A DNA stretch of 64,000 nucleotides from a virus, in the IMG/VR virus record IMGVR_UViG_3300028883_000046, positions 1-64,000 of that record, one strand, 5' to 3'. The position numbers and the translations under genes are program-made. Under the pieces are notes generated by a model. The model did not search any database and was not told the origin of the DNA. It saw only the letters and a program-made list of their open reading frames with translations. Position 1 is the first letter of the stretch. The number at the start of each line of letters is the position of its first letter. Below, piece by piece: positions 40,814-64,000 of the stretch.

Positions 40814-41117
40814 CGATCTCTCCTTTTTCTTCGGTTAATGTTATTTTTATTCTATCCAAAATTGATTGAATTTTTTGTTGATCTTCTACTACACTTTTTA
40901 GAGCTTCCGAAAAGTTGTTAACTTTTATACCTCTCTTTCCTTGAAAGAAATCTCTTATTGTTTCTTTTACAAAAAATGATGCATTCATTTTGTTGATAGA
41001 TTTATTTTTTGAATCTGCCAATTTGAATTGTTTTCTTGCTATAAGTACTCTTTCCGAATAGATAGCATCAGGCGAAGAGTCGTCCTCTATTTTTATTTCG
41101 ATTGACATTAAAGGCAT
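40797..41117 (-). CDS. Hypothetical protein, 106 aa
   Basis: Two ATGs follow an AAAGGAGG ribosome site; the second (41117) has the better spacing. The first strand is IEIKIEDDSSPDAIYSERVL, then helical with INKMNASFFVKETIRDFFQG, and a Lys/Glu-rich C-terminus. It starts on the stop of the dCMP deaminase gene, so it is coupled to it. No family is recognised. Confidence 0.5.
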   Translation of the reverse strand: MPLMSIEIKIEDDSSPDAIYSERVLIARKQFKLADSKNKSINKMNASFFVKETIRDFFQGKRGIKVNNFSEALKSVVEDQQKIQSILDRIKITLTEEKGEIDGRVD

Positions 41118-41668
41118 CATAGCCTCCTTTGCGAAGTGTTACCAATTAAGACTTTATAGATCTTTTGCAGATCGTCGTTGGTTAGCTCTATCTGTTTATA
41201 TTTTACTTTATATTCTTTTGCCTTTCTAAACCAATAATCGTCTCTTTCTTTATCGTCGCTATGATACTTCATTTCATAGAAAACACTTTGAATGCCAACC
41301 GAGCTGATATTCTTTAGGCACATAATGCATGGTTGTAGAGTACAATAAACCTTTGCACCAGATAGATCCCCTAAACCTCCCAAAGAAGTAATTTGATTCA
41401 AGGCATTTTGTTCTGCATGTATTGCCGGACACTCTTGATATTTTTTATCTCCCTTATCATCTACTTTTAAAGATCTTCTGTGGCAGTATTTTGGGCCGTT
41501 GTCGGTACACTGAGGCTGGCCAGGCAAGCTTCCGTTGTAACCTGTGGCTATTACTCTTTTGCCAAGGACGATTACTGCTCCGGTTGGTCTTGAATTGCAA
41601 CCAGATCTAATGGCGGCAAGTTTTGCAAGAGCCATAAAATATTTGTCCCAAGGAATTCTATTATTCAT
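41117..41668 (-). CDS. dCMP deaminase
   Basis: 183 aa from ATG 41668, which has a GGAGAG leader and overlaps the tiny upstream frame as ATGA. Zinc site: HAEQNA (His84, Glu86) and PCIMC (Cys114, Cys117), with the usual GYNGSLPG substrate loop near residue 44. The enzyme converts dCMP to dUMP, the substrate of thymidylate synthase encoded just upstream. A CHRRSLKVDDKG segment between them matches phage dCMP deaminases. Confidence 0.9.
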   Translation of the reverse strand: MNNRIPWDKYFMALAKLAAIRSGCNSRPTGAVIVLGKRVIATGYNGSLPGQPQCTDNGPKYCHRRSLKVDDKGDKKYQECPAIHAEQNALNQITSLGGLGDLSGAKVYCTLQPCIMCLKNISSVGIQSVFYEMKYHSDDKERDDYWFRKAKEYKVKYKQIELTNDDLQKIYKVLIGNTSQRRL

Positions 41669-41751
41669 ATACACTCTCCAAGATATGCAACAAATATTGA
41701 GGCAGAAATAAGGATAATCCAAACTAAAATTGACTCCCAATCAATTCTCAT
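41665..41751 (-). CDS. Mini membrane peptide, 28 aa
   Basis: ATG 41751 is preceded by AAGGAATAGTAAA, in which the ribosome site overlaps the thymidylate synthase stop. The 28-codon frame starts MRIDWESILVWIILISASIF and ends in a TGA that overlaps the dCMP deaminase ATG as ATGA. It has one hydrophobic helix and an acidic start. The tight fit between two nucleotide enzymes and both couplings support translation; it could anchor them to the membrane. Confidence 0.6.
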   Translation of the reverse strand: MRIDWESILVWIILISASIFVAYLGECI

Positions 41752-41755
41752 TTTA

Positions 41756-42502
41756 CTATTCCTTATTCAAATAATGCATTACAGCGCCGAGTTGATAATC
41801 ATAACAATGGAGCCCTTGAGAAGCAAAGGAGAGCGGGCCGGGATCAATGGATAGCTCTTCTGCTATGTATTGATTTAGCAAAGCAAAGCCACCCATGTTT
41901 TCGGGAAAACCTGCATATAAATCCCAGGATCGATATATGATGCCAAGAAGTACTTTGTTATCCTTGATTTTGATATCGATGCCGCGAAGACAAGGAGAGG
42001 TTCTCCGATCGGTTTCGTTTTTATAAGGGAAGTCATAATTGAAGTTTATTGTCGGATCGCCAATTGTAATAAAGCAATGATTATTTCCAAATCCTTTTTC
42101 TTTGAAATGACGGATGCACCACCCGAGCTGTGATTCGTTATATTTGGAATCTTTATGAAGCGGAACGCTTGGGTTGAAGTATTCGCCATTGATCCAGGTT
42201 GAGTAGCGATACTCTTCATTCGGTGAGAGATTGGGATCCATGAGATAGTTGGCAAAGTACTCTTCTATTTTTTCATCCGTAGTAGTTGGCGGTATCCCTG
42301 CGGGCATAATAGGGGCAAGCGGTCTTGTGTGCGGGTATCGAATAAAGCCGGCTGCAAAAGGAATTTCTACTCTCTTGCCTCCCTTGTTTGATCCTTCTGT
42401 TATTTTAAATTCATATCCATAATCATAGCAATGACTAATCAGTTGGAAGTAGGCATCGTCAATATTGTTTGCTTCTATCAGTGCTGGTTTAAGATCTTTC
42501 AT
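41756..42502 (-). CDS. Thymidylate synthase homologue
   Basis: 248 aa, shorter than bacterial ThyA (264 or more). The core is clear: catalytic Cys171 in TSPCLRGIDIKI, phosphate-site RSWD (191-194), Asn202 in GFPENMGGFALL, and His232/Tyr234 in GLHCYDYQ. Asn at the GxPxN position is the residue that selects dUMP, whereas dCMP hydroxymethylases carry Asp there. It should make dTMP (or a dUMP derivative) from the product of the deaminase encoded downstream. The N-terminal third diverges from standard ThyA. Confidence 0.82.
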   Translation of the reverse strand: MKDLKPALIEANNIDDAYFQLISHCYDYGYEFKITEGSNKGGKRVEIPFAAGFIRYPHTRPLAPIMPAGIPPTTTDEKIEEYFANYLMDPNLSPNEEYRYSTWINGEYFNPSVPLHKDSKYNESQLGWCIRHFKEKGFGNNHCFITIGDPTINFNYDFPYKNETDRRTSPCLRGIDIKIKDNKVLLGIIYRSWDLYAGFPENMGGFALLNQYIAEELSIDPGPLSFASQGLHCYDYQLGAVMHYLNKE

Positions 42503-45954: not shown

Positions 45955-46869
45955 TCAGCCTTTCGGTACGAATTCATGGAAAGCATTTCCTATTGTTTTG
46001 GAAAGTAGTTTATATACCTTTTTTGGATTGGAAGACTTTTCTATAAGCTCATGAATAATTTCCACAACGCTCATATTGTCAAGATTAGGCATTTCAAACA
46101 TATCGCCAATATTTTTTTCTTCTTTCTCTTTTGCATCCTTGTTTATATTTTTTCTTAATACTTCGAACCAAGGCTTGCACGGAATCTCTACCTCTCCAAT
46201 CTCTGAGGAAGAGTTATAGACGTATACTCTTGGATTGTGTTTTCTCATAAAGTCGGACGACTCAAGGCGCATAAGCGGGCCAGTGTTACAGACAATCTTT
46301 CCTTTTTTCTTTTCCATAAAGTTTCTATGAATATCTCCGCAAATTGTGAGATTGAAATCTTTTACTTTTCTTCGAAACTCTTTTAGCCTAATAAACGAAT
46401 GCCCAGGGAATAGAGCGTTTAGATATACAGGCGCATGGATTGAAAGAATATTTGTTTCCTTGCTTTCTTTTACTTTCGGGATATCCTCTCGCCAACTACA
46501 TCCATACAGATTGACACCTTTAAGCTTGTATGGTTTCTTGCCAAGTACTATTGCGCTATTTGTCTTCTCCAGTATACCAATATTGGTTACCACGTTTTTA
46601 TTTCTAAAATATAGATCATGTTGTCCGTATACAGTGAAGAAAAGAGTTTTTGGATATTTATTTTTTAGCGTCAAGAAAGTAAATAGAGCGGTGATATCTC
46701 TCGGCGTATCGAAGAGATCTCCGGCACATATTATTGGCGCATTGCGTAACCTCAAAGATAGATCGAAAATAAATTTTAATTTAGCTTTTGCATCCTTGAG
46801 AGGATCGCCAATTCTACCTCTTGGAATTCTACTCGTTATGTGCGGATCAGATATTAGAATAAAATTCAT
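45955..46869 (-). CDS. Mre11/SbcD-like nuclease
   Basis: 304 aa metallophosphoesterase with the metal motifs ISDPHITS (Asp8, His10), CAGDLFDTP, VYGQHD, LSIHAPV and CGDIHRNF, then a C-terminal capping region. With Rad50 it processes DNA ends for recombination and replication. It overlaps the Rad50 N-terminal half by 23 bases and precedes the coiled-coil gene by three. T4 gp47 is the functional analogue. Confidence 0.88.
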   Translation of the reverse strand: MNFILISDPHITSRIPRGRIGDPLKDAKAKLKFIFDLSLRLRNAPIICAGDLFDTPRDITALFTFLTLKNKYPKTLFFTVYGQHDLYFRNKNVVTNIGILEKTNSAIVLGKKPYKLKGVNLYGCSWREDIPKVKESKETNILSIHAPVYLNALFPGHSFIRLKEFRRKVKDFNLTICGDIHRNFMEKKKGKIVCNTGPLMRLESSDFMRKHNPRVYVYNSSSEIGEVEIPCKPWFEVLRKNINKDAKEKEEKNIGDMFEMPNLDNMSVVEIIHELIEKSSNPKKVYKLLSKTIGNAFHEFVPKG

Positions 46870-47812
46870 CTTTCATCCTTTTAACGGTTGACTGCTTTAT
46901 GGCAGATAAACAAACAGGACATTTTTTACTCTTCTTCAATCCTTCAATAAGTTTGTCGGTTAGATCAAAGAATTTATTTTTAAGATTGCCAACATTTCTT
47001 GAGGCTTTTATAAAGTTAAGGATGTCTTCTTTTAGGCTTTCTAAATTCTCTTTTCTCTCTTCGATTTCCTTTAGCTTGTCTACTACCCCAACCGCTTGCA
47101 ATGCTTTTTTTAACCTTTTTGTTTTTCTTTCCGATGCAATGATATTAGCCATCGTAGTTTCTATCATATAAATTTTCTTTTCCAGATTTCTTTTTCTTCT
47201 TTCTACTCTTCCCAACTTGCTTATTGTAGGATCAATTTTATGTATATCCTTGACGACTTCAAGGGTGTCAAGGATCTTTGCTTTTTCCTTTAGCAGATCG
47301 GTCAAAATCAAATCACTACTTTTTATTGCATCTTTAACGGCTCTTATCCAATTGTCTATCATGTTAATATTGGTAATTTGATTTATCTCTTTTGTCACAT
47401 TTGGAGGACTGCTTAGAACCATATAGGGAGGGTCTAACTGTCTCTGAACATTAATCGCTCTTATACCAAGTACGTTGTAAACCTTGTTTGGTACGTTTCT
47501 ATTTAGCTTTCGAAATTTCCAAGTTTTATCTTTTTCAAGATCTTTTACTATATATTCGGTCTCTTTTCCTCTGATTAGTTTTACTTCTTTGTTATCCGTT
47601 GTCCTTAAAGTTATTTCTGTTTGGGCGTCTTCATCGGCGAAATTACTTTTCCAACGATTGAAAGGGCGAAGCTTCCGCAACATTTCAATCGCCCTAATGA
47701 TATTTGTTTTGCCGGCCATTCCTTCGCCAACTATTGCGTTTACTCTTTTTGAGAATACTATCTTGGTATCCTCGTAACTTCTAAAATTCTTTAGAGTCAA
47801 ATACTTTATCAT
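46847..47812 (-). CDS. Rad50/SbcC-like ATPase, N-terminal half with zinc hook
   Basis: 321 aa from ATG 47812 (ribosome site AGGTGA); the GTG three codons earlier lacks spacing. Walker A is VGEGMAGKTNIIRAIEML (about 28-45). A coiled coil runs through about 195-290. The zinc-hook motif CPVC is at 298-301, only 20 residues before the stop. The gene thus stops right after the hook; signature and Walker B are in a separate gene. Confidence 0.85.
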   Translation of the reverse strand: MIKYLTLKNFRSYEDTKIVFSKRVNAIVGEGMAGKTNIIRAIEMLRKLRPFNRWKSNFADEDAQTEITLRTTDNKEVKLIRGKETEYIVKDLEKDKTWKFRKLNRNVPNKVYNVLGIRAINVQRQLDPPYMVLSSPPNVTKEINQITNINMIDNWIRAVKDAIKSSDLILTDLLKEKAKILDTLEVVKDIHKIDPTISKLGRVERRKRNLEKKIYMIETTMANIIASERKTKRLKKALQAVGVVDKLKEIEERKENLESLKEDILNFIKASRNVGNLKNKFFDLTDKLIEGLKKSKKCPVCLSAIKQSTVKRMKDEFYSNI

Positions 47813-48107
47813 AGACTTCACCTATCTTTTTTATTCTATCCAGTCTTCGTTGCCTTTTCCTATGTTTTTGAAACAAGGAAACAACTCTTCTTAATTCGTT
47901 AGAATATGTTCGAAGTATAGCCAGTTTTTTTCTTAAAAGAACTTTTGCCGCTTCTGCTCCAACGTCTTCGTCTATTGCTATAAATTGCGGCGTCATACCG
48001 TCAACCAACTCGATCAAATATTTAAAATGTTTTTTTATAGAACCCGTTTTTATTGCTTCCTCTACCTCTTTATCGATATCAAGGATCGTCCTTGGATTTT
48101 GTGGCAT
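47781..48107 (-). CDS. Hypothetical protein, 108 aa
   Basis: Helical and basic C-terminus (ELRRVVSLFQKHRKRQRRLD); the N-terminal PQNPRTILDIDKEVEEAIK is acidic. It overlaps the Rad50 N-terminal half by 32 bases. No family is recognised; a link to end processing is suggested by operon position only. Confidence 0.55.
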   Translation of the reverse strand: MPQNPRTILDIDKEVEEAIKTGSIKKHFKYLIELVDGMTPQFIAIDEDVGAEAAKVLLRKKLAILRTYSNELRRVVSLFQKHRKRQRRLDRIKKIGEVYDKVFDSKEF

Positions 48108-48111
48108 TTTC

Positions 48112-48996
48112 TTAATCCTTTAAAAAAGCATTCTCCCATTTTTGAAACTCTTCCTTTTCCAAGAAGCTTCTCAGACCGTATTTTGAAAATGTTTGGATAA
48201 ACGCTTTTCTGCTATATCTATTCCGCCTTATTACTTTGCTTAGGTTATCATCAAGCGGTAGCTTCACCAGCGAGAGATTTTTCTTTATTGTATCTTTGCC
48301 CTGCTTTGAAGTGATTCGCTCGTATATCTTGCCGGCAATCAATTCCTTTCTGACATATTTAAGCGCTTTGGACTTCGGTTGTTTCGGATCACTCGCACCT
48401 TTAATGCCTATAACGTTGTCACCAGAGCAACCGCCAATAGCTTTACATAAAGGCCATTGGGAAGGATCAACTTTATACTTCTCTAAAAAATCTTTTTTGG
48501 TAAACTTTTTAAGTTTCTTTGGCGATACTATATCACAATCGTTTAGGCACTGGAACATATCGTTGTCCGCGCTTACCATGATTACTTTTTTTGCCTTCAA
48601 CTTTTCGCATATGTAGGCCATTAGGTCGTCGCCTTCATAACCTTTCTGAATAAACAAATTTCGGAAACCCATGCTTTTCAAGGCGAAGTCTCGTAACTCT
48701 ACTTCCTGATTAAATTTGTGGTTGAAAAGTTCAAGGTCTTCCTTGCTAAGTTCTTTCCTGTGTTTTACTCTTTGCGCTTTGTAGACCGGGTCGATTTGCT
48801 TTCTGTAGTTTACCGAATGATCAAAGCAAAAATAGAAATGATTTGTTTCAAACTTTTTGGCAATGGCCAATACCTTTTTTAAAAATCCGTAAATTACTCC
48901 CGTTGGTTTGTTATCATATGAGAGGACACCATAAGAGAAAAACGCTTGATATATAAGTCCGGATGAATCGACTATGATATGATTTTTGTTTTTCAT
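48112..48996 (-). CDS. 5'-3' exonuclease / flap nuclease (T4 RNase H-like)
   Basis: 294 aa. The PIN/FLAP-type motifs are visible: N-terminal HIIVDSSGLIYQAF, FDHSVNYRKQIDPVYKAQR, the acid cluster GYEGDDLMAYI, SADNDMFQCL and the H3TH-like GGCSGDNVIGIKG. The enzyme should remove RNA primers and 5' flaps during lagging-strand synthesis. It overlaps the downstream small gene's end by one base. Confidence 0.88.
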   Translation of the reverse strand: MKNKNHIIVDSSGLIYQAFFSYGVLSYDNKPTGVIYGFLKKVLAIAKKFETNHFYFCFDHSVNYRKQIDPVYKAQRVKHRKELSKEDLELFNHKFNQEVELRDFALKSMGFRNLFIQKGYEGDDLMAYICEKLKAKKVIMVSADNDMFQCLNDCDIVSPKKLKKFTKKDFLEKYKVDPSQWPLCKAIGGCSGDNVIGIKGASDPKQPKSKALKYVRKELIAGKIYERITSKQGKDTIKKNLSLVKLPLDDNLSKVIRRNRYSRKAFIQTFSKYGLRSFLEKEEFQKWENAFLKD

Positions 48997-49175
48997 TATC
49001 TCTCCGAGGCTCGTTTAAATATTTGTTCTAATACTTCGTATTGATTTTCCGTCAATCTGCCGTTTCTTTGAAAAAATTGTTCGTAATCAATAACAAGATT
49101 TTCTTCGTTTTCCGTTAGATTATCGTATTCCATAAATCTGAAAATATGCTCAATTCTTTCCTCTACTTCTTTCAT
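48996..49175 (-). CDS. Small acidic helical protein, 59 aa
   Basis: I use the ATG at 49175, which overlaps the recombinase stop as TAATG; the longer frame from 49298 lies inside the recombinase gene. The protein is acidic and helical, including IEHIFRFMEYDNLTENEENL. It sits between the recombinase and exonuclease genes. No family is recognised. Confidence 0.6.
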   Translation of the reverse strand: MKEVEERIEHIFRFMEYDNLTENEENLVIDYEQFFQRNGRLTENQYEVLEQIFKRASER

Positions 49176-50272
49176 TATAACCCCCTGTATTCTCTTTCCT
49201 CTACCTCTTCTTGGAAAAGATCCTCGATATCGTTCCATATTTTTTCTACTTCTTTGGCAAGTTTTTTCTGTAACCCTCTTTCTTCTACTGCCAAACAAAA
49301 GTCATGAAGCTTTCCTTCAAGCTTTATGCCCTCCCATTTTTTCTTGCCTTTCTTTTTCAAATACATTGCATTGGATAGAATATCATCCATTCCATAGTCA
49401 AATAGGAAAGCAAACTCGGCAGATCTAAAGGATAATCCTACTTTGCTTCTTTCAACTTTTAATTCACAATGCATCCCGTAAACTTTGCTTTCCTTGTTTT
49501 TTGTTTTTGAGAGTTTTTGAACAACTCTAATCCAGGGTACCAAGTGAGTGTAGAAGTTTAAAGCATCTCCGCCGGTTCTGTATTTCTTCTTCCCAAATAC
49601 AACGCCAATTTTTTGTTTCGTTTGGCTTATAACAATAAGTGTTGCGTCCGTGTTATTGTCTTCTAACATTTCGCACGCCTCGGAAAAGAAGGACCAGGCG
49701 AATTGCTGTTTTTTCATATTGAAACCTTTTATAATGTCTTCGTCTTTTTCTTCCAAAATCTTTGTATCATGAATGCTTTTGAAGCTGTCCCAAGAATCAA
49801 TGATGTAAAGAAGCGCTTCGTTTTCTTTTAGCTTCTTACACTCTTCCATATAATCTCTTCCAACCGATTCTATTGTTTTGCTTCTTCGCCATTTTATCGA
49901 GTCTATGAATTTTTGTCCATACATTTTTTCAAGCGGGAAGTCCATAACACCTTCGCCGTTGTTGTATATGACTTTGGGCACTTTATTGCTTCCGAATATT
50001 TTACTTTTCATTTTTGGTATTGTTTTAAGAAAGGATAGGCAAGTTTCTAATGCTATAAGAGTTTTGCCGCTTGAGCCATCGCCCACAAAGTTTGTAACCC
50101 GACAACGAGGCACGCCGTTCTTTCTCTTTCCTGAGACTGCAAGATTTATCATCGTGCAACCACTTGAAAAAAATTCAACGTTTACTTTCCTTAGTTTGGA
50201 ACGTTTTTTGATCTCATTCTTTATTTGTTTGGCGGCTCTATCAAATTTATTTCTTTTTCTTCTTTTTATCAT
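49175..50272 (-). CDS. RecA/UvsX-like recombinase
   Basis: 365 aa. Walker A is VGDGSSGKTLIAL (residues 64-71), Walker B LLYIIDSWDS (about 155), and the L2 DNA-binding region SQTKQKIGVVFGKKKYRTGG (about 235-255) is preserved. A basic N-terminus precedes the core. It should catalyse strand exchange with the gp32-like SSB encoded upstream. A terminator separates the two genes. The C-terminus is acidic (EEVEEREYRG). Confidence 0.9.
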   Translation of the reverse strand: MIKRRKRNKFDRAAKQIKNEIKKRSKLRKVNVEFFSSGCTMINLAVSGKRKNGVPRCRVTNFVGDGSSGKTLIALETCLSFLKTIPKMKSKIFGSNKVPKVIYNNGEGVMDFPLEKMYGQKFIDSIKWRRSKTIESVGRDYMEECKKLKENEALLYIIDSWDSFKSIHDTKILEEKDEDIIKGFNMKKQQFAWSFFSEACEMLEDNNTDATLIVISQTKQKIGVVFGKKKYRTGGDALNFYTHLVPWIRVVQKLSKTKNKESKVYGMHCELKVERSKVGLSFRSAEFAFLFDYGMDDILSNAMYLKKKGKKKWEGIKLEGKLHDFCLAVEERGLQKKLAKEVEKIWNDIEDLFQEEVEEREYRGL

Positions 50273-50347: not shown

Positions 50348-51604
50348 TTAGATTTGCTCTTCTATGATCTCTTCTATCAGATCGTCCTTGTCTGATTTGC
50401 CATAGTAGCTAAGATCGATATCGAGCTTGTGTTTTTTAACGTACTTCTTCAATTTGATGAAACTCATTTTTTCAAGGGTTTCCCGAAGTTCGTCTTCCTC
50501 GTCGTCCTCCTCGTCTTCGTCCTCATCTTCGTCCTCATCGTCTTCCTCTTCGTCTTCGTCTTCATCTTCTTTGGAGATAAACGGCGGCACAGACCGGTCT
50601 TCGTCCTCGTCGTCCTCGTCGTCCTCGTCTTCCTCGTCTTCGAGCATTTCCTCGATTTGTTTTTTTACTTTCTTTTTCTCTTTTCTGAACTTGCCATCCT
50701 CGTCAATCTCAATATCAATTTCGTTTTCTTCGACAAATTCAGCCAGATCCTCAAGATCCTCAATTTCGTCCAAATCTTCCAACAATCCTTCGACTACTTC
50801 TTCCAAAGATTTTTTCTTTTTTGCTTTCTTGCCGGTTTTCTTCTTTTTGTCGTCCTCGTCTTCTCCGCTAAACATGGCGTTTTTCATTTCTTCGTATGAG
50901 GCGAGTTGGACAAGCTCATCCAAGGCGTGGGCAGTCTTGAGGATCTTTATATCGATTTCATAATTGCGGTCGTCAAAAGCATGTCCGACGTATTTAGGAT
51001 AATCGTCTTTACTCTTTGCTTTTTCTACCGTAAAAGAAATTGATTTGCCATTTTCAGGATCGATAAAGTTGACAGTCTTGTCTTCTTTGCCTTGACGGGA
51101 AGGTTTTCTACTGATGGCCATCAAAGGTTTTTCAAAATAGAAATTTGCTACATCCCAAACCTGGACGCCTTTCTTCGTCTCTTTCTTATCATCGTAGGAT
51201 ATGACGTTATACATATTCCTCGTCTTGGGCCACCACTTCTTATAGTTGTCGTCGTCGTTCTCTCTCAACTTCTCCCTATGTTCGCAGGCCGGGCACTTCT
51301 TCCCATACATGCGCGGGCAAACATATTCGATATTGTTTGGTCCGAGGCGATGCATTTGGTATTCGAAAGTGTACGTTTGGGCACCCTCTTCTACCGCTGG
51401 ATCGTTACTGCCAGCGAAGTAAGGAATAATATCGATGATATGTGTGCCCTCTTTAGGGAAGTAAAAGCTTACGTTCAAATCATCTTTAAAGACGTTTGAT
51501 TTGTAGCCTTTTGCCTTCTCTTGGTTCTTTTTAATTCTCTTTACCAACTCGTCTTGCTGAAACATCCTTTTCTTGCGGTTGATCTTTTTCTTGTTTTTCT
51601 TCAT
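50348..51604 (-). CDS. gp32-like single-stranded DNA-binding protein with acidic/SAP-like C-terminus
   Basis: 418 aa from ATG 51604 behind TTGGAGGAAGAA; the earlier in-frame ATG at 51646 has no such site. Residues about 50-230 are the T4 gp32-type core with the zinc motif YVCPRMYGKKCPACEHREK and FHxxxR-like segments. Then come a Lys tract and long Asp/Glu blocks, interrupted by two helical repeats (EDLEDLAEFVEENEIDI and SFIKLKKYVKKHKLDIDLSY) that resemble SAP/HeH motifs. The acidic tail should recruit partner proteins as in T4; the SAP-like units are unusual and might bind DNA. Codon use is G+C-rich. Confidence 0.85.
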   Translation of the reverse strand: MKKNKKKINRKKRMFQQDELVKRIKKNQEKAKGYKSNVFKDDLNVSFYFPKEGTHIIDIIPYFAGSNDPAVEEGAQTYTFEYQMHRLGPNNIEYVCPRMYGKKCPACEHREKLRENDDDNYKKWWPKTRNMYNVISYDDKKETKKGVQVWDVANFYFEKPLMAISRKPSRQGKEDKTVNFIDPENGKSISFTVEKAKSKDDYPKYVGHAFDDRNYEIDIKILKTAHALDELVQLASYEEMKNAMFSGEDEDDKKKKTGKKAKKKKSLEEVVEGLLEDLDEIEDLEDLAEFVEENEIDIEIDEDGKFRKEKKKVKKQIEEMLEDEEDEDDEDDEDEDRSVPPFISKEDEDEDEEEDDEDEDEDEDEEDDEEDELRETLEKMSFIKLKKYVKKHKLDIDLSYYGKSDKDDLIEEIIEEQI

Positions 51605-51746
51605 TTCTTCCTCCAAAGTTTTCTTTGATGGTTCTGACAATTGCAAGTGTTATTAACCTTGACAAGGTGTAAAAGAATACAAAAACGGCAAATAGCCCGC
51701 CGATTGATAGGATTGTGATAGACAATATGTTGAATAGTTGCTCCAT
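51531..51746 (-). CDS. Small membrane protein, 71 aa
   Basis: One hydrophobic segment, LFNILSITILSIGGLFAVFV continuing to FFYTL (about 4-28), and a charged tail that overlaps the start of the SSB gene by 74 bases in another frame. The ribosome site is weak (AAGAAGA). It follows the upstream gene by one base, so it is possibly a real coupled gene. Confidence 0.5.
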   Translation of the reverse strand: MEQLFNILSITILSIGGLFAVFVFFYTLSRLITLAIVRTIKENFGGRNEEKQEKDQPQEKDVSARRVGKEN

Positions 51747-51747
51747 G

Positions 51748-52224
51748 TTATCGTCTTCTTATAGAGTGTTTTTGATTTAGCTCTTCTTCGATTTGTTTCC
51801 TTGTTTGTCGATTGAATTGCTTTTCGTATTCTCTCGGTACTCTTACCTCAGAATTTTTCTCCCTGTGAATATGGTAGAGGTAACTTTCCAACATTCTCTT
51901 TCTTTGTTCGAATGCTTTTTCGGCTTTATAAATAAGCTTATAATTGTTTCTTGCCTTGTTAAATCGTTTTAAAGCAATCTTTACTCTTTGATTGGAAGCC
52001 ACTTCTGATTTAATCGCGCCCTCGGTGGTTTTATCTCCTTTCTTTCTGATTTTCTTCTCAACCTCGATAACGATTAAATCATAAGCATCCTTGGCCTTGT
52101 CTTTTTCTACTTCCGCTTCTGCGGCAAGTTGTGCCCAATCGTAATACTTTTGGGCTTGCTCTAACAATTCCTTGTCAATCTTGTATTTATTAATTGACAA
52201 GTCGGCCCTTGAGTTTGTCTTCAA
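51748..52224 (-). CDS. Helical charged protein, possible recombination mediator, 158 aa
   Basis: The start TNSRADLSINKYKIDKELLE and following QAQKYYDWAQLAAEAEVEKD match a pattern I associate with phage proteins encoded near RecA and SSB, some of which act like UvsY. The rest is a long Lys/Glu helix ending in a basic tail. Loading of the recombinase on SSB-coated DNA would fit, but is unproved. Confidence 0.58.
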   Translation of the reverse strand: MKTNSRADLSINKYKIDKELLEQAQKYYDWAQLAAEAEVEKDKAKDAYDLIVIEVEKKIRKKGDKTTEGAIKSEVASNQRVKIALKRFNKARNNYKLIYKAEKAFEQRKRMLESYLYHIHREKNSEVRVPREYEKQFNRQTRKQIEEELNQKHSIRRR

Positions 52225-52793: not shown

Positions 52794-55700
52794 TCAAAGT
52801 TTGTCTTTTGCTAATGATTTAAGCAACTTTCTAAACTTCTTCATTCCTGTTTTGAAATAAACTTCGTTTTCGGGATTGTGCAACTTGGCGGCTGGGTGGA
52901 TACAATATACTATCCAACAACCGAACTTTTCGGACCATATTGTCTTGCCACTCATTTTAGATATTCCAGTTTTCTTTCCTTCAAAGAATTCCAAAGAAGT
53001 ATTACCAAAGGCCAGGATCAAACAAGGTTTGATTTGCTGTAACTCTTGAGTTAGATAGAGATCGGCGCAAGTTTTTATCTGTTTTGAATTCGGCTTTCTA
53101 CTCTTTGATGGGAAACACTTGGCAACATTCGTAACGTGAAATAACTCTCTTGGATATTTAACCGCGGTCCATACTTCTTTACCAGATCTACCAACAAACC
53201 CTTTCCCTTTTTCGTCTTCTTCTTTTCCAGGTGCTTCTCCGACTATTGCAACATTCAACTCGCCAGGTGAAGGCTTCACGGGCTTTCTACACTCTTCGCA
53301 TAGTTCGCATTTTTTACAATCAACGAAATTTTCAATTGGGTTATATGCGGGAGAGTCGTAAGGCTTAAAAGATTTTCTTTTTGCTATACTGCCAAGCTTT
53401 TTAATATCTTTTACTTCTCCGGCTAAAATATCGTCTAATCGATCAAGTCTTATAGAGCCACCAAACAGTTTATAAAGTCTTGAGTAATTGCTTTTTGGAT
53501 TGGATACGATTCGAAACTTAAAAAGATCTTTAACCTCTTCTGTAATTGCCGCGCTATTGTTTGGATCATTCGCACCAATCAAAAGTAGCTTCTTTTCAAG
53601 ACTACTAATATCCTTTGATGCTTTCTTCTTTTTTGGTTTCTTAGAAAAGAACTTTGTTAATGCACCATCCTCAATTTTTGTAAATTTAAATTGAGAAGCC
53701 TCAAGTGCCGTCTTTTGTCCTAAACCTTTTACTTCCACAAAAGGCACGAGTAATTTATTATCTCTTGCTTTCCATTCGAAAGGATCGTTTATATCGACTT
53801 TGGGAAGCTGAAGGATCAATCCAAGTCTATATGCTTCTTCTATCAACTCAGGTTTCTTTTTATCGTCACCAAACGAAAGGGAAGAGCAAACAAACTCGGT
53901 TGGAAAGTAGTATTTCAGCCATGCGCACCAATATGCGAGCATGGCATATTCAACACTATGGGCAAGATTAAATGAATATCTTGAATGTTCATGAAGTCCT
54001 GTCCAAAACTCTTTCGCTTCTCTTTTGGAAATGATCTTTGTTTTCTTACAGGCGTCAATAAATATATCTTCATACTCGTCAAACTCTTTAACGTCTCTTT
54101 TCTTTCCAATTATCTTTCTTATTTTGTCGGCCGTAGAATAAGGCAGACCGGCTACTTTATAAATAACCTCCATAACCTGCTCTTGAAAAAGTATTACGCC
54201 ATAAGTATCTTTGGTTAGCTCTTCGTAAATTGGATGCTTCTTTTCCCATCTCTTGCCGTGTTTTCTTTCGATGTATTGGGCAGTCATTCCGCTATTCATT
54301 GGCCCAGGTCTAACAAGTGCTACCGAGTCAACTATGTGCCTAAATTTATCCACTCCCATCTCTCTTATTAAGTTGGTCATTGAATAAGTATTTAATTGAA
54401 AAACTCCCGTGTTATTACCCTTGCTTATTTCTTTCAATACGGCTTTATCATTTAGGTTAAGCTTTTCAAGATTAATATCTTTGCCGTGATTTTCTCGAAT
54501 TAAGGTTAAAACATTACTCAAAATAGAAAGAAGTTTTAATCCAAGGGAGTCGAGCTTCATAAACCCCATATATTCTGCGTCTTCTTTTTCCCAGTTTATA
54601 AGTTTTACGCCATTTCTTTCTATTAGGTTACATCTTCCACTCTTCGCTATATCAACCATTGATATTACTATAGCGGCCGCATGTTGACCGTAACCTCTAA
54701 CCTGTCCCGCTAATTTCTTCGCAAGATTGATAACTTTAGGATAGTTATTATAAAACTCTTGGCATTCACGATAGTTTGCAATTGCGCTTTCGATTTTTTC
54801 CGCTTCGGAAACCGGCTCGATATCATCTATCAATTTTGTGAAGGCGTTTACTTCGGATTGCTTTACGTCAAATACTCTTGCAACATCTTGAACCGCGGCT
54901 CTTGCTTTCATCCTATTAAAAGAAGAAACGCCGGCGATATTATTCTCTCCATATAACTCTTCCAAATGTTCTTTTATTAAATGCCTTTTTGAGTCTTCAA
55001 AATCAATATCAATGTCTGGATAGTCAATTCTATCCTCGTTGATAAATCGAGCAAAGTAAAGTTTATGAACGATAGGATCAACCGAAGTAATGTTCATAAG
55101 ATATGCAATGAGACTTCCACCAACAGATCCTCTACCTGGACCGATTAGGATTTTGTTTTCTCTACACCAATTACATAGTTCCCAAACTATTAAAAAATAT
55201 CTTGAAAAGTTTTTACTCTTAATAATTCCATACTCTTCTTTTAACCTTTCAAAATATATCTTTTGCTTTTTTATGGATTCGCCAAATCTTTTCTTAAATC
55301 CTTTAACACAAAGTCTCCAGAGGAATTTGTCTTCTTCGTCAGGCGCGATACCTTCTACCTCAGGCAATTCTATTTCTTGCTGTTTGATTCTAAAATCGCA
55401 ACATTTCTTTGCCAACTCTATGGTATTATCCAAATACTCTTTTTTATAAATTTTTGCTTTCTTTAGAACCCTTATCATTTCTTTTTCAGATCTTAGGTGA
55501 AGACCCTTAATATCAAATTTAAATCTGTTAGGATCGTCCCATTTTACTTTCCGTTGAATTGCCAACATTACTTCCTGAACTTTATGATCCGATGGTCTAA
55601 TATAATGACAGTCGTTTGTTGCAATTATTTTTGTATTGGTTCGCTTTGCCAGCTTGATAATACGACGATTATACTTTCGTTGAATCTCCATATCATGCGG

Positions 55701-56192
55701 CATGATTTCTGCATACAAATCGTCTCCCATTTTCTTCTTCAATTTTTCAAAAAACTTTTCACCTCCCTGTATGTTTACAAAACTACCTAAACAAGCTGTT
55801 CCAAATATCAAACCCCTTCGGTATTTTAAAAGAGTTTTAAAATCTATTCTTGGTTTGTAGTAATACCCTTCAAGGTTGGCAATCGAAAGCATTTTACAAA
55901 GATTTTTAAATCCTGATTTGTTCTTAACCCAGATTGTGATATGGCCAATCTGTGCTTTTTTCTTATACTCTTTTACAAGATATCCTTCACAACCAAGGAT
56001 AGGATTAATTCCTTCTTTGTCGCAGGCTTTTTGAAATTTAATAAGACAATCAATGTTGCCGTGATCCGTACAAGCCATATACTTCATGCCAAGCTTTTTG
56101 GCTCTTTTTGCAAAGTCTTCTGGAAAACCAAAGCCGTCCAATTTGCTTTGGGTAGTATGTAAATGCAGATGGCAGAAATTACTTTTATTCAT
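52794..56192 (-). CDS. dnaE: DNA polymerase III alpha fused to a family-4 uracil-DNA glycosylase
   Basis: 1132 aa. Residues 1-270 are the PHP domain (CHLHLHTTQSKLDG and ACTDHGN). The C-family catalytic core follows: GPGRGSVGGSLIAYLMNIT, the two catalytic Asp in YPDIDIDFED, the third in MKLDSLGLKLL, and the finger motif GVFQLNTYSMTNLIREM. A helix-hairpin-helix lies near 815. Residues about 950-1132 are a complete family-4 uracil-DNA glycosylase: 4Fe-4S cysteines near 959-968 plus Cys1026 and Cys1042, motif GEAPGKEEDEKGKGFVG (from 985) and HPAA (1099-1102). It replaces the usual tau-binding C-terminus. Polymerase and uracil repair are therefore in one chain. Confidence 0.9.
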   Translation of the reverse strand: MNKSNFCHLHLHTTQSKLDGFGFPEDFAKRAKKLGMKYMACTDHGNIDCLIKFQKACDKEGINPILGCEGYLVKEYKKKAQIGHITIWVKNKSGFKNLCKMLSIANLEGYYYKPRIDFKTLLKYRRGLIFGTACLGSFVNIQGGEKFFEKLKKKMGDDLYAEIMPHDMEIQRKYNRRIIKLAKRTNTKIIATNDCHYIRPSDHKVQEVMLAIQRKVKWDDPNRFKFDIKGLHLRSEKEMIRVLKKAKIYKKEYLDNTIELAKKCCDFRIKQQEIELPEVEGIAPDEEDKFLWRLCVKGFKKRFGESIKKQKIYFERLKEEYGIIKSKNFSRYFLIVWELCNWCRENKILIGPGRGSVGGSLIAYLMNITSVDPIVHKLYFARFINEDRIDYPDIDIDFEDSKRHLIKEHLEELYGENNIAGVSSFNRMKARAAVQDVARVFDVKQSEVNAFTKLIDDIEPVSEAEKIESAIANYRECQEFYNNYPKVINLAKKLAGQVRGYGQHAAAIVISMVDIAKSGRCNLIERNGVKLINWEKEDAEYMGFMKLDSLGLKLLSILSNVLTLIRENHGKDINLEKLNLNDKAVLKEISKGNNTGVFQLNTYSMTNLIREMGVDKFRHIVDSVALVRPGPMNSGMTAQYIERKHGKRWEKKHPIYEELTKDTYGVILFQEQVMEVIYKVAGLPYSTADKIRKIIGKKRDVKEFDEYEDIFIDACKKTKIISKREAKEFWTGLHEHSRYSFNLAHSVEYAMLAYWCAWLKYYFPTEFVCSSLSFGDDKKKPELIEEAYRLGLILQLPKVDINDPFEWKARDNKLLVPFVEVKGLGQKTALEASQFKFTKIEDGALTKFFSKKPKKKKASKDISSLEKKLLLIGANDPNNSAAITEEVKDLFKFRIVSNPKSNYSRLYKLFGGSIRLDRLDDILAGEVKDIKKLGSIAKRKSFKPYDSPAYNPIENFVDCKKCELCEECRKPVKPSPGELNVAIVGEAPGKEEDEKGKGFVGRSGKEVWTAVKYPRELFHVTNVAKCFPSKSRKPNSKQIKTCADLYLTQELQQIKPCLILAFGNTSLEFFEGKKTGISKMSGKTIWSEKFGCWIVYCIHPAAKLHNPENEVYFKTGMKKFRKLLKSLAKDKL

Positions 56193-57412: not shown

Positions 57413-58330
57413 TTAATCAGAATAAATAGAGGCAATAGTTAGAATTATCGCAGGCATTCCTATCTCTAATGTTTTGCAATGATAGAAGTACTCTCCAATG
57501 GCAAGTGCGTTTTCATTCATTTTGCCAGAAATAAGAATTTTTGACATATATCCACAAATTGCTCTTTTGATTGTTTCGGGAGGCTCTTTTATCTGCTTTA
57601 ATAAATCACATATAGTTTTGTACTTTTCCCTCCTTAGAAGTAATTGACATAATTCCACCAATTCTTTGCTTACCATTTCATCGATATATTCATATCCTTC
57701 AATTATCTTTTTGATTTGTTTTTTCGACTTCATGTTGGATATTGAATCGAGGATAAGAAGAAGTTTTCTTGGTATGCCGTTGGAAGACAAAATAATGTCT
57801 CTATATAAACTCTTGTCTATGGTTAGCTTTTCTTTTTTAATTATTCTTTTTAATAGTGTTTTTGATTCTCCATAATCAAGCTTGTTAAGCTTGTGAATAA
57901 CACATCTTGATTTTACTGCCGGAAGTAATTTTTGCGGATCAGTAGTACAAAGAACAAAAAGAACGTCTTTGGGAGGCTCTTCAAGTATTTCGAGCATGGC
58001 GTCCTGAAATTGTTTTGTGGCTTCATGGCATTCGTTTAATACTATTGTTTTGCCTGTTCCCAATAAGGAGTGAGTTTGCACGGAATCTATAATTGCTCTT
58101 GCGTTTTCAATTCCTCTTGTTTTGGAAATATTCAACTCTATCAATTCTGATTTTCTTATTTTCCCAATTATTCTTGCAATGGTTGTTTTACCACAACCAG
58201 TCTCTCCAACAAGAAGTATAGAGGATGGCCATTTTTCGACATTCGAAATATATTCCTTTATCGAGTCGTTTCCTAAAATTCTTTTGATGTTTTTTACTCT
58301 ATGCTTTTTATCGAAGGTTAAATCTTCCAT
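57413..58330 (-). CDS. Clamp loader ATPase subunit (DnaX/RFC-like)
   Basis: 305 aa. AAA+ motifs: Walker A VGETGCGKTTIARIIG (about 37-52), Walker B TIVLNECHEAT with the Glu, sensor CTTDPQKLL, and the arginine-finger SRCV typical of clamp loaders (about 140). The C-terminal collar region is shorter than in DnaX. It should load the sliding clamp encoded immediately upstream. No separate delta subunit is recognised. Confidence 0.88.
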   Translation of the reverse strand: MEDLTFDKKHRVKNIKRILGNDSIKEYISNVEKWPSSILLVGETGCGKTTIARIIGKIRKSELIELNISKTRGIENARAIIDSVQTHSLLGTGKTIVLNECHEATKQFQDAMLEILEEPPKDVLFVLCTTDPQKLLPAVKSRCVIHKLNKLDYGESKTLLKRIIKKEKLTIDKSLYRDIILSSNGIPRKLLLILDSISNMKSKKQIKKIIEGYEYIDEMVSKELVELCQLLLRREKYKTICDLLKQIKEPPETIKRAICGYMSKILISGKMNENALAIGEYFYHCKTLEIGMPAIILTIASIYSD

Positions 58331-58343
58331 TTTACTCTCCTTT

Positions 58344-59369
58344 TTAGACGTTTAAGGCGATTACATGCTTAAACTCTTCCTGTTCAAAAATTATTCTATT
58401 GGAGGAATAATAAAAAATAACGTTTCTACTGGAAATCTTTTTTAGAATATCGATAAGATAGCTTGGATTAACTATCATTTCTATATCCTCTTTTATTTTC
58501 GATTTCATCCTGCCTTTTTCTAAACTTGATCCAAAATCATTTTTGGATGAAATTTCAAACTTTTTGTTTTTTTGAATAACTATACTTATTTCCTCTTTTT
58601 TCAATGACTCTCCGGAGGCAAATATTTTGCACCTTTCTATCGCCTTTAAAAATCCTATTCTGTTTGTTTCCAGTTTTACTTCCTTTTCGAAAATTTCTTC
58701 TTTTATTTTTGGATACTCCGCAACAAGAAGAGGAATCTTGATATAATACTTTTCGCTTTTAAACTCTATACTCTTCTTTCCAACATGATAGAAATCCAAT
58801 CCAAGATTTTCTATTAAGGAAACGCATTGACTTGATAGAACAAAATCTTTGGAAAGCGGATTAGAAAACGGATAATAGGAGCATCTATTTTCATCTGTAG
58901 TTATCAACCCATCCTCAAATATCCCAAAATAAGTCAATATCCAGTTAATACTTTCTTTTGACAAAGATATTTTACAGAAAGATAAGGCCGGAAAGAAGTT
59001 TTTCGGGATTGCTTCCCATTTCTTTGTTTTCTTGATTTTTGGGAAATCAATCTCTTCTTCTACAAAGGGAATTTTTGCTACTATTTTACCTTTGTCCTTA
59101 TGTTTTATTTTTATAAAATTTTCGCTCGATACAATTTCAATTTCCTTTTTTGGATTAAGGCTTTCAAGTAGTTTTTGAAACTTATCAAACATGATTACGC
59201 AATCCTTAATATCATGTTTTAATTTTGCCTCAATATACATCTCTTGACTTTTTGTGATTAGTTTATTCTCAGAGAATTTTAAATAAGAAGTATTTATGGA
59301 CGTATCCGAAGAAGAGATATTAAAAAGATTTTTTGTTAACTCTGAAATGTTTTCAACTATTGCCTTCAT
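58344..59369 (-). CDS. dnaN: Sliding clamp (DnaN-like)
   Basis: 341 aa with three-domain beta-clamp organisation: an N-terminal VENISELTKNLFNISSSDTS, then a middle domain with FPALSFCKISLSKESINWIL, and a C-terminal domain FLKAIERCKIFASGESLKKE, closing with FEQEEFKHVIALNV, the usual end of DnaN. Its start overlaps the preceding gene's stop by four bases. It holds the polymerase on DNA together with the clamp loader next door. Confidence 0.82.
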   Translation of the reverse strand: MKAIVENISELTKNLFNISSSDTSINTSYLKFSENKLITKSQEMYIEAKLKHDIKDCVIMFDKFQKLLESLNPKKEIEIVSSENFIKIKHKDKGKIVAKIPFVEEEIDFPKIKKTKKWEAIPKNFFPALSFCKISLSKESINWILTYFGIFEDGLITTDENRCSYYPFSNPLSKDFVLSSQCVSLIENLGLDFYHVGKKSIEFKSEKYYIKIPLLVAEYPKIKEEIFEKEVKLETNRIGFLKAIERCKIFASGESLKKEEISIVIQKNKKFEISSKNDFGSSLEKGRMKSKIKEDIEMIVNPSYLIDILKKISSRNVIFYYSSNRIIFEQEEFKHVIALNV

Positions 59370-62324: not shown

Positions 62325-63965
62325 TCACTCCTTTTTTTCTTTCGAAACGGGATAATGCGTATTGTAGTTATGCCAAAATTCACTATCCAACATCGCATGG
62401 CACGTTTCGAGGCGCTGGGTTAACATTACTTCTGAGTTAAGAAGTCTCCCTTTCCGTTTGAAAAGCATTCCTACCCTTTGTAAACCAAGTTCTTTTTCTA
62501 ATTCGGAACTATTTATTGTGATTCTCATATCAAGATGGGCGTCCTTAGTTTTACTTTCACTTGTGTCCATTACGCCGATGGATCTTTTACCTCTTGCTGA
62601 TTTTATTGTTTGATCTGCTAACAGTATAAGGGCGTCCAGCTCTTGAGATAAACCCGCGCACTTCTTCCAATTGTAGTCGATATTAAATCTATCCATCAAG
62701 TTGCCCTCTATAGGTCGCATAATGTCTGGATAGTCGATCATGATTATATCTGGTTTAAAGTTCTTTTTAGAGGTATAAGTTTTTATGTAGGTTATTACAT
62801 CGTCGAGAGTGGCAGAAAAGCGCGGGAAGCATCTCATTCGGTAATTGTTTATACCAAAAGGGATAAATTTCTTTACTGTGTTTATTATTCTCTTCTCGCT
62901 TATAGGTTTTATTTTTATTACTTTGAACCAAATTGCAGGAATAAATCTTTTTGTTTTCTTCGCTCTTTTATCTTGCTTGTTTCTACACTTTTGGCAAACT
63001 CTCCAATCTCTTCTTTCATTGTAGGAAACCAAATCGTCTATCGAGTAAAGTAAATCTTTTGCGTTTAATTTTCTTTTTCTAACCTCGCATGTTCCAAACT
63101 GATTATTTTCACAATCAAAAACGGGTATAATTAACTCTCCTGCATGTTCATGGTCTAATGCATAGTTGCCAAGTCTTTGCCACAATCTTTCTTGTTTGTC
63201 TTCAATTGGCATTTCAAGATTTATATCCAATATTTTTAGCTTATGATGAATTACTCCTCTATATCCTACTTCTTGCATAAAGTGAGTCTTGCCAGATTTT
63301 TCAACACCGGTTATTGCTATTAGCTTCGATCTTGAAAATGGCCCTATAAAACTACCTATAGCTCCTGGAAGTCTAAACAATTCGTTTTTGTCTTTTTCTT
63401 CTCCATAATATTTTCTTACCGCTCTAATACTTGCCGGCTTTACTGTCCCAAGCTCTGGATCAAAATCCTCTTCTACTATAGGATTATATTCTTTTATTAT
63501 CTTGTCTATATCCTCGATTTTATTTGATTGGATTTTTGCCTGCAAATTTGAAATGACTATTTCCGCTTCCTGTCTTTTTACAAATCGTGGTATTATCTCT
63601 TTCTTTATAAACTCAGGATTAACTCCCACCTCTTGAGTTTTGGCGAACTCTTCTGCAAGTCTATCCAAATACTCTTCAACAATCCTTGCGGTATCTTTGT
63701 TTAAGGATTTGCTATAGCTTCTAAAAACTTCTTTGATAGTTTGTTTGGGAGCTTTTGAATAGTCGCCGTGGTACTTCATTAGCCATCTAAATATAGGCTG
63801 AAAGTATTGTCCAAAGTGCTTTGTCTTTATCTGGCCCGACTTGTATTTCTCGTAAACAAAAAGAAGTATTTCGTCAAACATGATCGAGTAAGACAATATG
63901 AACCATTCGTCCTCATAGATATCCTGCGACTCAAGTTCCAATATGTCGCTTAACTTTCTTCCCAT
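62325..63965 (-). CDS. DnaB-like replicative helicase
   Basis: 546 aa. The N-terminal region is helical; Walker A GVEKSGKTHFMQEVGYRG (220-227 core), a DINLEMP segment (motif 1a), Walker B PDIIMIDYPDIMRP (about 415) and the late LILLADQTIKSARG give the RecA-type core of DnaB/gp41-like helicases. Between Walker A and B is an insertion with a CQKCRNKQ zinc-like motif and basic residues. The ATG at 63965 (AAGAAAGG leader) is preferred over the TTG two codons earlier. It unwinds DNA at the fork and is the first replication gene seen in this window. Confidence 0.82.
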   Translation of the reverse strand: MGRKLSDILELESQDIYEDEWFILSYSIMFDEILLFVYEKYKSGQIKTKHFGQYFQPIFRWLMKYHGDYSKAPKQTIKEVFRSYSKSLNKDTARIVEEYLDRLAEEFAKTQEVGVNPEFIKKEIIPRFVKRQEAEIVISNLQAKIQSNKIEDIDKIIKEYNPIVEEDFDPELGTVKPASIRAVRKYYGEEKDKNELFRLPGAIGSFIGPFSRSKLIAITGVEKSGKTHFMQEVGYRGVIHHKLKILDINLEMPIEDKQERLWQRLGNYALDHEHAGELIIPVFDCENNQFGTCEVRKRKLNAKDLLYSIDDLVSYNERRDWRVCQKCRNKQDKRAKKTKRFIPAIWFKVIKIKPISEKRIINTVKKFIPFGINNYRMRCFPRFSATLDDVITYIKTYTSKKNFKPDIIMIDYPDIMRPIEGNLMDRFNIDYNWKKCAGLSQELDALILLADQTIKSARGKRSIGVMDTSESKTKDAHLDMRITINSSELEKELGLQRVGMLFKRKGRLLNSEVMLTQRLETCHAMLDSEFWHNYNTHYPVSKEKKE

Positions 63966-64000
63966 ATTCAACCTTTCTTTGGCTAACTTGCCAGATATTT

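What the first reader, a model, noticed from the sequence alone, without database searches (positions are those of the whole stretch)
52794..56192. DNA polymerase III alpha fused to a family-4 uracil-DNA glycosylase
One 1132-residue chain has an intact PHP plus C-family polymerase and, at 951-1132, a complete 4Fe-4S uracil glycosylase (GEAPG and HPAA motifs, four cluster cysteines). Uracil glycosylases are known as separate enzymes or as fusions to family-A polymerases in some phages; fusion to DnaE, replacing its C-terminus, looks rare. It would couple uracil removal or sensing to synthesis, and matches the neighbouring dCMP deaminase and thymidylate synthase that handle dUMP.
Basis: seen in the sequence. 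Interest (0 to 1): 0.8.

Follow-up and report, generated by a model that had tools for sequence, protein, structure and literature searches.

The report
Phage replicative polymerase carrying uracil glycosylase
A bacterial virus fuses its main DNA-copying enzyme to a repair enzyme that cuts out uracil; the fusion is real and recurs in dozens of uncultivated viruses with its cutting site intact, although the bare architecture was briefly described in 2013.

Summary
Minus-strand ORF 52794-56192 encodes one 1132-residue chain: PHP, C-family polymerase, a tandem HhH region, then a family-4-type uracil-DNA glycosylase (UDG, ~955-1132) where DnaE normally has OB and CTD domains. It is not an assembly artefact: IMG/VR scans found 80 single-frame DnaE-UDG ORFs (73 distinct, 65 UDG clusters at 90%). 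All polymerases over 40% identical to this one are fused; the 76 next-nearest (34-38%) are not. In a 26-row set the four Fe-S cysteines and catalytic residues are almost invariant, as are PHP metal ligands and polymerase aspartates. AlphaFold gives DnaE (Z 40-45) plus TthUDG (Z 22.4, 2.0 A).

The architecture is not new: Timinskas et al. (PMC3919608) reported it as an extra DnaE in Yersinia pestis and Salmonella. The related phage-plasmid proteins read here have a degenerate UDG that lost catalytic residues. So this is a distinct, catalytically intact lineage of a known fusion.

Most likely it is the phage replicase excising uracil at the fork; activity and coupling are inferred.

The parts
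52794..56192 (-). DnaE-UDG fusion, single ORF of 1132 aa, ATG start at 56192
   Evidence: same architecture in 80 viral ORFs
55704..56171 (-). PHP domain (residues 8-163 by Pfam); ligands H10, H12, D19, H44, E69, H84, C134, D194, H196 all present (D194 and H196 lie just beyond the Pfam hit)
   Evidence: invariant in every aligned fused sequence with a residue there
54039..55325 (-). C-family polymerase palm/thumb/fingers (residues 290-718), catalytic D393, D395, D548
   Evidence: Pfam PF07733 and PF17657; Asp triad invariant 26/26; fold Z 40-45 to DnaE
53568..53750 (-). HhH region (residues about 815-875), with VKGLG and LLLIGAND motifs
   Evidence: alignments; position as in DnaE (PMC3919608); assignment partly by inspection
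53520..53534 (-). candidate weak beta-clamp binding motif VKDLF (residues 887-891), consensus xxx[LYF]F in the fused family
   Evidence: by position and pattern only, not tested
52797..53330 (-). family-4-type UDG domain (residues 955-1132): C959, C962, C1026, C1042; E986, E992, F999, N1022, H1099
   Evidence: TthUDG fold Z 22.4, rmsd 2.0 A over residues 943-1128
57413..58330 (-). phage clamp loader (DnaX/delta-prime-like AAA+)
   Evidence: near the fusion gene in several relatives
58344..59369 (-). phage sliding clamp (DnaN-like)
   Evidence: phrog_947 1.5e-24
62325..63971 (-). DnaB-like replicative helicase
   Evidence: phrog_19 9.7e-26
51748..52224 (-). conserved small protein beside the fusion gene, function unknown
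   Evidence: found beside the fusion gene in many of the loci examined
50348..51646 (-). SSB-like acidic protein; no significant family, function inferred from position and composition
   Evidence: syntenic in relatives
49175..50272 (-). RecA/UvsX-like recombinase
   Evidence: syntenic
48112..48996 (-). 5'-3' exonuclease
   Evidence: syntenic
45955..47821 (-). SbcD-like and SbcC/Rad50-like pair
   Evidence: syntenic
41117..42502 (-). dCMP deaminase (41117-41740) and divergent thymidylate synthase (41756-42502): context only, not a conserved companion
   Evidence: distribution

Best explanation
This is the phage's own replicative C-family polymerase, working with a phage clamp, clamp loader and DnaB-like helicase, to which a catalytically competent family-4-type UDG is tethered where DnaE has its OB and CTD domains. 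As the replicase moves, the tethered UDG excises uracil (deaminated cytosine or incorporated dUMP) from phage DNA close to the fork. The resulting abasic sites are then processed by host AP endonuclease, by the phage recombination genes, or conceivably by the PHP domain of the same chain. Shown: single chain, domain identities, retention of active-site residues, replication-cassette context, recurrence in a viral clade. Inferred: glycosylase activity, action at the fork, the fate of the abasic site.
For: Single ORF with the Pfam domains named. Eight of nine pre-named Fe-S/catalytic UDG positions are conserved in at least 25 of 26 sequences, and the ninth (E986) is E in 24 and Q in 2; only 20 of 168 UDG columns are that conserved (hypergeometric P 8e-8 against other columns of the same domain; this shows retention, not activity). 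Of 65 clusters at 90%, 60 match a strict G[EQ]xPG motif pattern and 63 the N..KC.P pattern. TthUDG fold Z 22.4 and DnaE fold Z 40-45. PHP ligands and polymerase aspartates invariant. SSB-like, RecA/UvsX, exonuclease, SbcCD, clamp and clamp loader genes recur nearby. It is the only DnaE and the only UDG found in the record. A related phage contig, L048, has PHP, UDG and DnaE as three consecutive genes, an unfused version of the same set.
Against: No assay. In enterobacterial and Acinetobacter phage-plasmids the fused UDG-like domain has lost motif 1, the motif-2 His and most cysteines, yet the domain remains, so it can have a non-catalytic role. A UDG acting on the template at a fork would make replication-blocking abasic sites, and no AP endonuclease was found in this record (only one sub-threshold hit in 11 records). 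TS, dCMP deaminase and dUTPase are not consistent companions. NCBIfam family-4 cut-offs are not reached.
Confidence: 0.6

Rival explanations
1. Uracil sensor or brake: the UDG domain reads the incoming template, binds uracil and stalls or signals (functionally comparable to uracil read-ahead by archaeal family-B polymerases), with excision secondary or absent.
For: Tethering right after the HhH/clamp-motif region places it near DNA (geometry inferred). Stalling ahead of U avoids copying it as T. Two rows of the first alignment (L018, L024) carry GQDPG instead of GEAPG.
Against: The other catalytic positions, including N1022 and H1099, are invariant, more than binding alone obviously needs. No structural evidence for a template path through the UDG pocket.
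Confidence: 0.2
2. Structural replacement: the UDG fold was recruited mainly as a DNA-binding module in place of the OB domain; glycosylase activity is incidental.
For: OB and CTD are absent here; in phage-plasmids of Enterobacteria and Acinetobacter a degenerate UDG-like domain is kept at the same place. Some fused relatives have about 160 residues instead of about 65 between the clamp-motif region and the UDG, with predicted OB-like strand order.
Against: In the window's own lineage the catalytic residues are retained almost without exception. The OB identity of the long linkers was not supported by profile comparison or fold search.
Confidence: 0.15
3. Artefact: a missed stop or sequencing error joins two genes.
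For: Single metagenomic record. One relative, L031, has the frames split.
Against: 80 fused ORFs in viral contigs, 65 UDG clusters at 90% identity, plus one MAG contig (L177).
Confidence: 0.01
4. Offence or exclusion: the fused UDG attacks uracil-bearing DNA of rival phages or of the host.
For: UDG is toxic to uracil-containing phage genomes (established knowledge of PBS-type phages).
Against: Fusion to the replicase predicts action in cis on replicating DNA; no associated defence genes were looked for or seen.
Confidence: 0.03

Closest known systems
DnaE-UDG variant (DnaEX) of some Yersinia pestis and Salmonella enterica strains, Timinskas et al. (PMC3919608)
   Same: PHP-Pol3-HhH core with OB and CTD replaced by a PF03167 UDG domain at the C-terminus.
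   Different: Related proteins on phage-plasmids of Escherichia, Cronobacter, Klebsiella and Acinetobacter read here have a degenerate UDG without the catalytic motifs. That these are the paper's variant is inferred from hosts and architecture; the Y. pestis gene was not fetched. The window's lineage keeps the whole active site and its polymerase is only about 30% identical. One common origin is neither shown nor rejected (AU p 0.37).
Family-A phage polymerases with N-terminal UDG (PaBG gp205, PMC7412058; phiLo PolA, PDB 9qhs; phrog_17)
   Same: UDG of the same superfamily fused to a phage DNA polymerase.
   Different: Other polymerase family, other terminus; UDG domains fall on another branch of the UDG tree (100*).
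Stand-alone family-4 UDG, e.g. Thermus thermophilus TthUDG (1ui0)
   Same: Fe-S cluster cysteines, E41/E47/F54/N80/H155 equivalents, fold.
   Different: Fused to a polymerase; about 30% identity; below NCBIfam family-4 cut-offs.
Phage DnaE without UDG (Streptomyces phage Wakanda and others)
   Same: Polymerase 34-39% identical, similar replication genes.
   Different: No UDG; a different C-terminal region.

Membership tests
C-family DNA polymerase, DnaE type | PHP + Pol3 core with catalytic Asp triad | tested here: met
   Pfam, TIGR00594 above its cut-off, D393/D395/D548 invariant, fold
C-family DNA polymerase, DnaE type | nine PHP metal ligands (proofreading-competent PHP) | tested here: met
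   all nine present and invariant; activity not tested
C-family DNA polymerase, DnaE type | beta-clamp binding motif after the HhH region | tested here: inconclusive
   VKDLF, weak xxxLF type, by pattern only
C-family DNA polymerase, DnaE1 typical architecture | C-terminal OB and CTD domains | tested here: not met
   about 65 residues between the motif region and the UDG; UDG fills the C-terminus
DnaE-UDG variant of Timinskas et al. | PHP-Pol3-HhH followed by a PF03167 domain instead of OB and CTD | tested here: met
Family-4 UDG | four Fe-S cysteines | tested here: met
   C959, C962, C1026, C1042
Family-4 UDG | GE(A/G)PG motif, E47/F54/N80/H155 equivalents | tested here: met
   E986, E992, F999, N1022, H1099 by alignment to TthUDG
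Family-4 UDG | NCBIfam curated score (a database rule, not a biochemical definition) | tested here: not met
   TIGR00758 102.0 against 125.3; NF040953 102.8 against 250; hence 'family-4-type', a divergent branch
Family-4 UDG | uracil excision activity | not testable with these tools
   needs protein
UdgX (covalent uracil-DNA binder) | R-loop insertion GKRRIH with reactive His109 | tested here: not met
   alignment to UdgX 8iir shows the insertion absent and no His
PolA-UDG phage fusion | family-A polymerase with N-terminal UDG | tested here: not met
   C-family polymerase, C-terminal UDG

The most novel reading that the evidence does not exclude
A one-chain base-excision-repair replicase: UDG removes uracil, the PHP domain incises the abasic site or trims the 3' end (AP-endonuclease activity is reported for the PHP domain of Bacillus PolX; own knowledge), and the polymerase refills, so that uracil repair is completed by the replicase itself. 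L048, with PHP, UDG and polymerase as three consecutive genes, fits.
Probability: 0.12. Interest if true: 0.85.

Novelty: new variant of a known kind. Interest (0 to 1): 0.52.

Why it matters
Bacterial replicases are thought to copy uracil unnoticed and leave it to separate repair enzymes. A viral lineage whose replicase permanently carries an intact uracil glycosylase makes coupling of uracil surveillance to replication directly testable. The contrast with phage-plasmid relatives, where the same domain has lost its active site, offers a natural experiment on catalysis against scaffold roles. It also extends the record: the architecture, mentioned once for two bacterial species, is a widespread viral replicase type.

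Tried and rejected
Artefact by frame error: rejected by 80 fused ORFs. UdgX identity: rejected, no R-loop His. Companion TS/dCMP deaminase/dUTPase as explanation: not general. AP endonuclease as phage-encoded partner: PF03372 none in 11 records, PF01261 one sub-threshold hit, none in G000. A single-protein scan with the UDG alone found nothing, probably because its patterns were too specific; alignment queries were needed. That the longer linkers of L017, L020, L023, L026, L028, L030, L033, L035 are OB domains: the predicted strand order fits, but hhalign to non-fused phage DnaE C-termini, a PDB profile search and Pfam gave nothing and the fold searches listed UDG-fold hits apart from a weak PolD row, so it is left open. 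Order of events (UDG gained, OB-like part lost): the tree needs one change between long and short linkers, but its direction and support (47/87) do not settle it. Independent origin of L067 or of the phage-plasmid fusions: suggested by the free tree, but a single origin is not rejected (AU p 0.11 and 0.37). Paper searches for DnaE-UDG in phages found nothing specific; the library lacks most subscription papers, so earlier reports may exist.

Full report
WHAT IS THERE. The window is part of a 75,717-base virus record; terminase, portal, tape-measure and tail genes mark a tailed phage. On the minus strand, 52794-56192 is one ATG-initiated frame of 1132 codons. Pfam places PHP at 8-163, the C-family polymerase at 290-551 and 555-718, and UDG at 978-1115. 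The best UDG models in NCBIfam are family 4, below their curated cut-offs. Aligned to Thermus thermophilus UDG, the four cluster cysteines are C959, C962, C1026 and C1042, and the equivalents of E41, E47, F54, N80 and H155 are E986, E992, F999, N1022 and H1099.

IS IT REAL. No record among 50,697 phages covers 80% of the protein, although 1379 match it in part; 28 match the UDG, and the five opened hold no DnaE beside it. IMG/VR is different. A UDG-alignment scan brought in contigs in which the same frame holds DnaE and UDG, a DnaE-alignment scan added three more, and a scan with the fused UDG family raised the total to 80 fused ORFs, 73 distinct, 65 UDG clusters at 90% identity. In the DnaE scan, every polymerase above 40% identity was fused and none of the 76 others (34-38%) was. 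On the polymerase tree 25 of the 26 fused proteins form one clade (SH-aLRT 96*). In the genome collection one fused gene appeared, on a 4-kb contig of a Syntrophaceae MAG, followed by a clamp loader; this may be a phage contig binned with the host. A sequencing error joining two genes is excluded.

IS THE UDG INTACT. In the fused proteins, whose UDG columns have a mean conservation of about 0.57, C962, C1026, C1042, E992, F999, N1022 and H1099 never vary, C959 varies once and E986 is Q in two. In the larger set, 60 of 65 clusters match a strict G[EQ]xPG pattern; several exceptions keep GEAP-like residues and one or two may be alignment failures. The nine PHP ligands and three polymerase aspartates are invariant where present. 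The AlphaFold model (mean pLDDT 86.7, pTM 0.73) matches DnaE at Z 40-45 over about 1-900 and TthUDG at Z 22.4, 2.0 A over 943-1128. The UdgX R-loop with its reactive His is absent. Retention of residues implies selection on the active site; it does not show activity.

SURROUNDINGS. The gene sits in a replication cassette: 5'-3' exonuclease, RecA/UvsX, an SSB-like acidic protein, a small conserved protein, clamp loader, clamp, DnaB-like helicase and SbcCD-like genes. Much of this order recurs around fused relatives. It is the only DnaE and only UDG found in the record, so it is very probably the phage replicase. The dCMP deaminase and divergent thymidylate synthase are present but are detected in only 3 of 19 fused records each, and dUTPase in 1 (many records are fragments). 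They do not explain the fusion.

WHAT IS KNOWN. Timinskas et al. (PMC3919608) described, as an unusual DnaEX variant in some Y. pestis and S. enterica strains, a DnaE whose OB and CTD are replaced by a PF03167 UDG. The architecture is therefore not new. Phage-plasmids of Escherichia, Cronobacter, Klebsiella and Acinetobacter carry DnaE with a UDG-like C-terminus, recognised by the fused-family profile at E 1e-9 to 1e-17. There motif 1 reads LDNANG or SDCPT, HP reads NP and most cysteines are gone. I take these as the same variant, by inference. So one branch keeps the domain without its chemistry, while the window's branch keeps the chemistry. UDG at the N-terminus of family-A phage polymerases is a separate known fusion (PaBG, PMC7412058; phiLo 9qhs), whose UDGs sit on another branch. 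L048 shows PHP, UDG and DnaE as three adjacent genes.

HOW IT MOST LIKELY WORKS. The simplest reading is a replicase that carries its own uracil remover in the place of OB and CTD, acting on phage DNA near the fork. Shown: the chain, the domains, residue retention and the context. Inferred: excision, position relative to the template, and the fate of the abasic site. The weak point is that an abasic site at the fork is harmful and no AP endonuclease was found in this record. Host enzymes, recombination or, speculatively, the PHP domain could deal with it. The sensor and scaffold rivals remain open, the second helped by the degenerate relatives.

OPEN. Eight fused relatives have about 160 rather than about 65 residues before the UDG, with an OB-like strand order in a model of moderate confidence, but no profile or fold match supports OB. 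Whether L067 and the phage-plasmid fusions arose separately is undecided.

VERDICT. A real, conserved, catalytically intact-looking lineage of a briefly described fusion: a new variant of a known kind, of moderate to good interest because its central claim is easy to test.

Noticed in passing
L024:34-3429 and L018 (UDG domain): UDG motif 1 reads GQDPG instead of GEAPG, resembling the GQDPYH motif of family-1 UDG, with the rest of the active site kept; 3 of 65 clusters in the larger set.
   Followed up: partly
L048:791-5380: PHP domain, UDG and DnaE core encoded by three consecutive genes in a phage contig; the UDG has KH where the family has the third cluster Cys (KC).
   Followed up: partly
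L092:4944-9196 and L093:1920-6163: Phage-plasmid dnaE split in the finger region, with another gene (annotated NUMOD4 endonuclease in Acinetobacter) between the two parts, in both Klebsiella and Acinetobacter elements.
   Followed up: no
window 59366-60550 (-): ATPase-like N-terminal part joined to a GNAT acetyltransferase-like C-terminal part in one ORF (phrog_11143, unknown function), next to the clamp gene.
   Followed up: no
window 50348-51646 (-): SSB-like protein with a very long Asp/Glu-rich stretch near the C-terminus and a zinc-finger-like Cys region; no clear family match.
   Followed up: no
window 41756-42502 (-): Very divergent thymidylate synthase (PF00303 E 6.5e-6) keeping a PC catalytic Cys and a P-x-N motif; whether it is a methylase or a hydroxymethylase is unclear.
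   Followed up: partly
L264:1900-6567: A fused DnaE-UDG ORF of 1556 aa, some 400 residues longer than the others, with RC in place of KC in the UDG.
   Followed up: no
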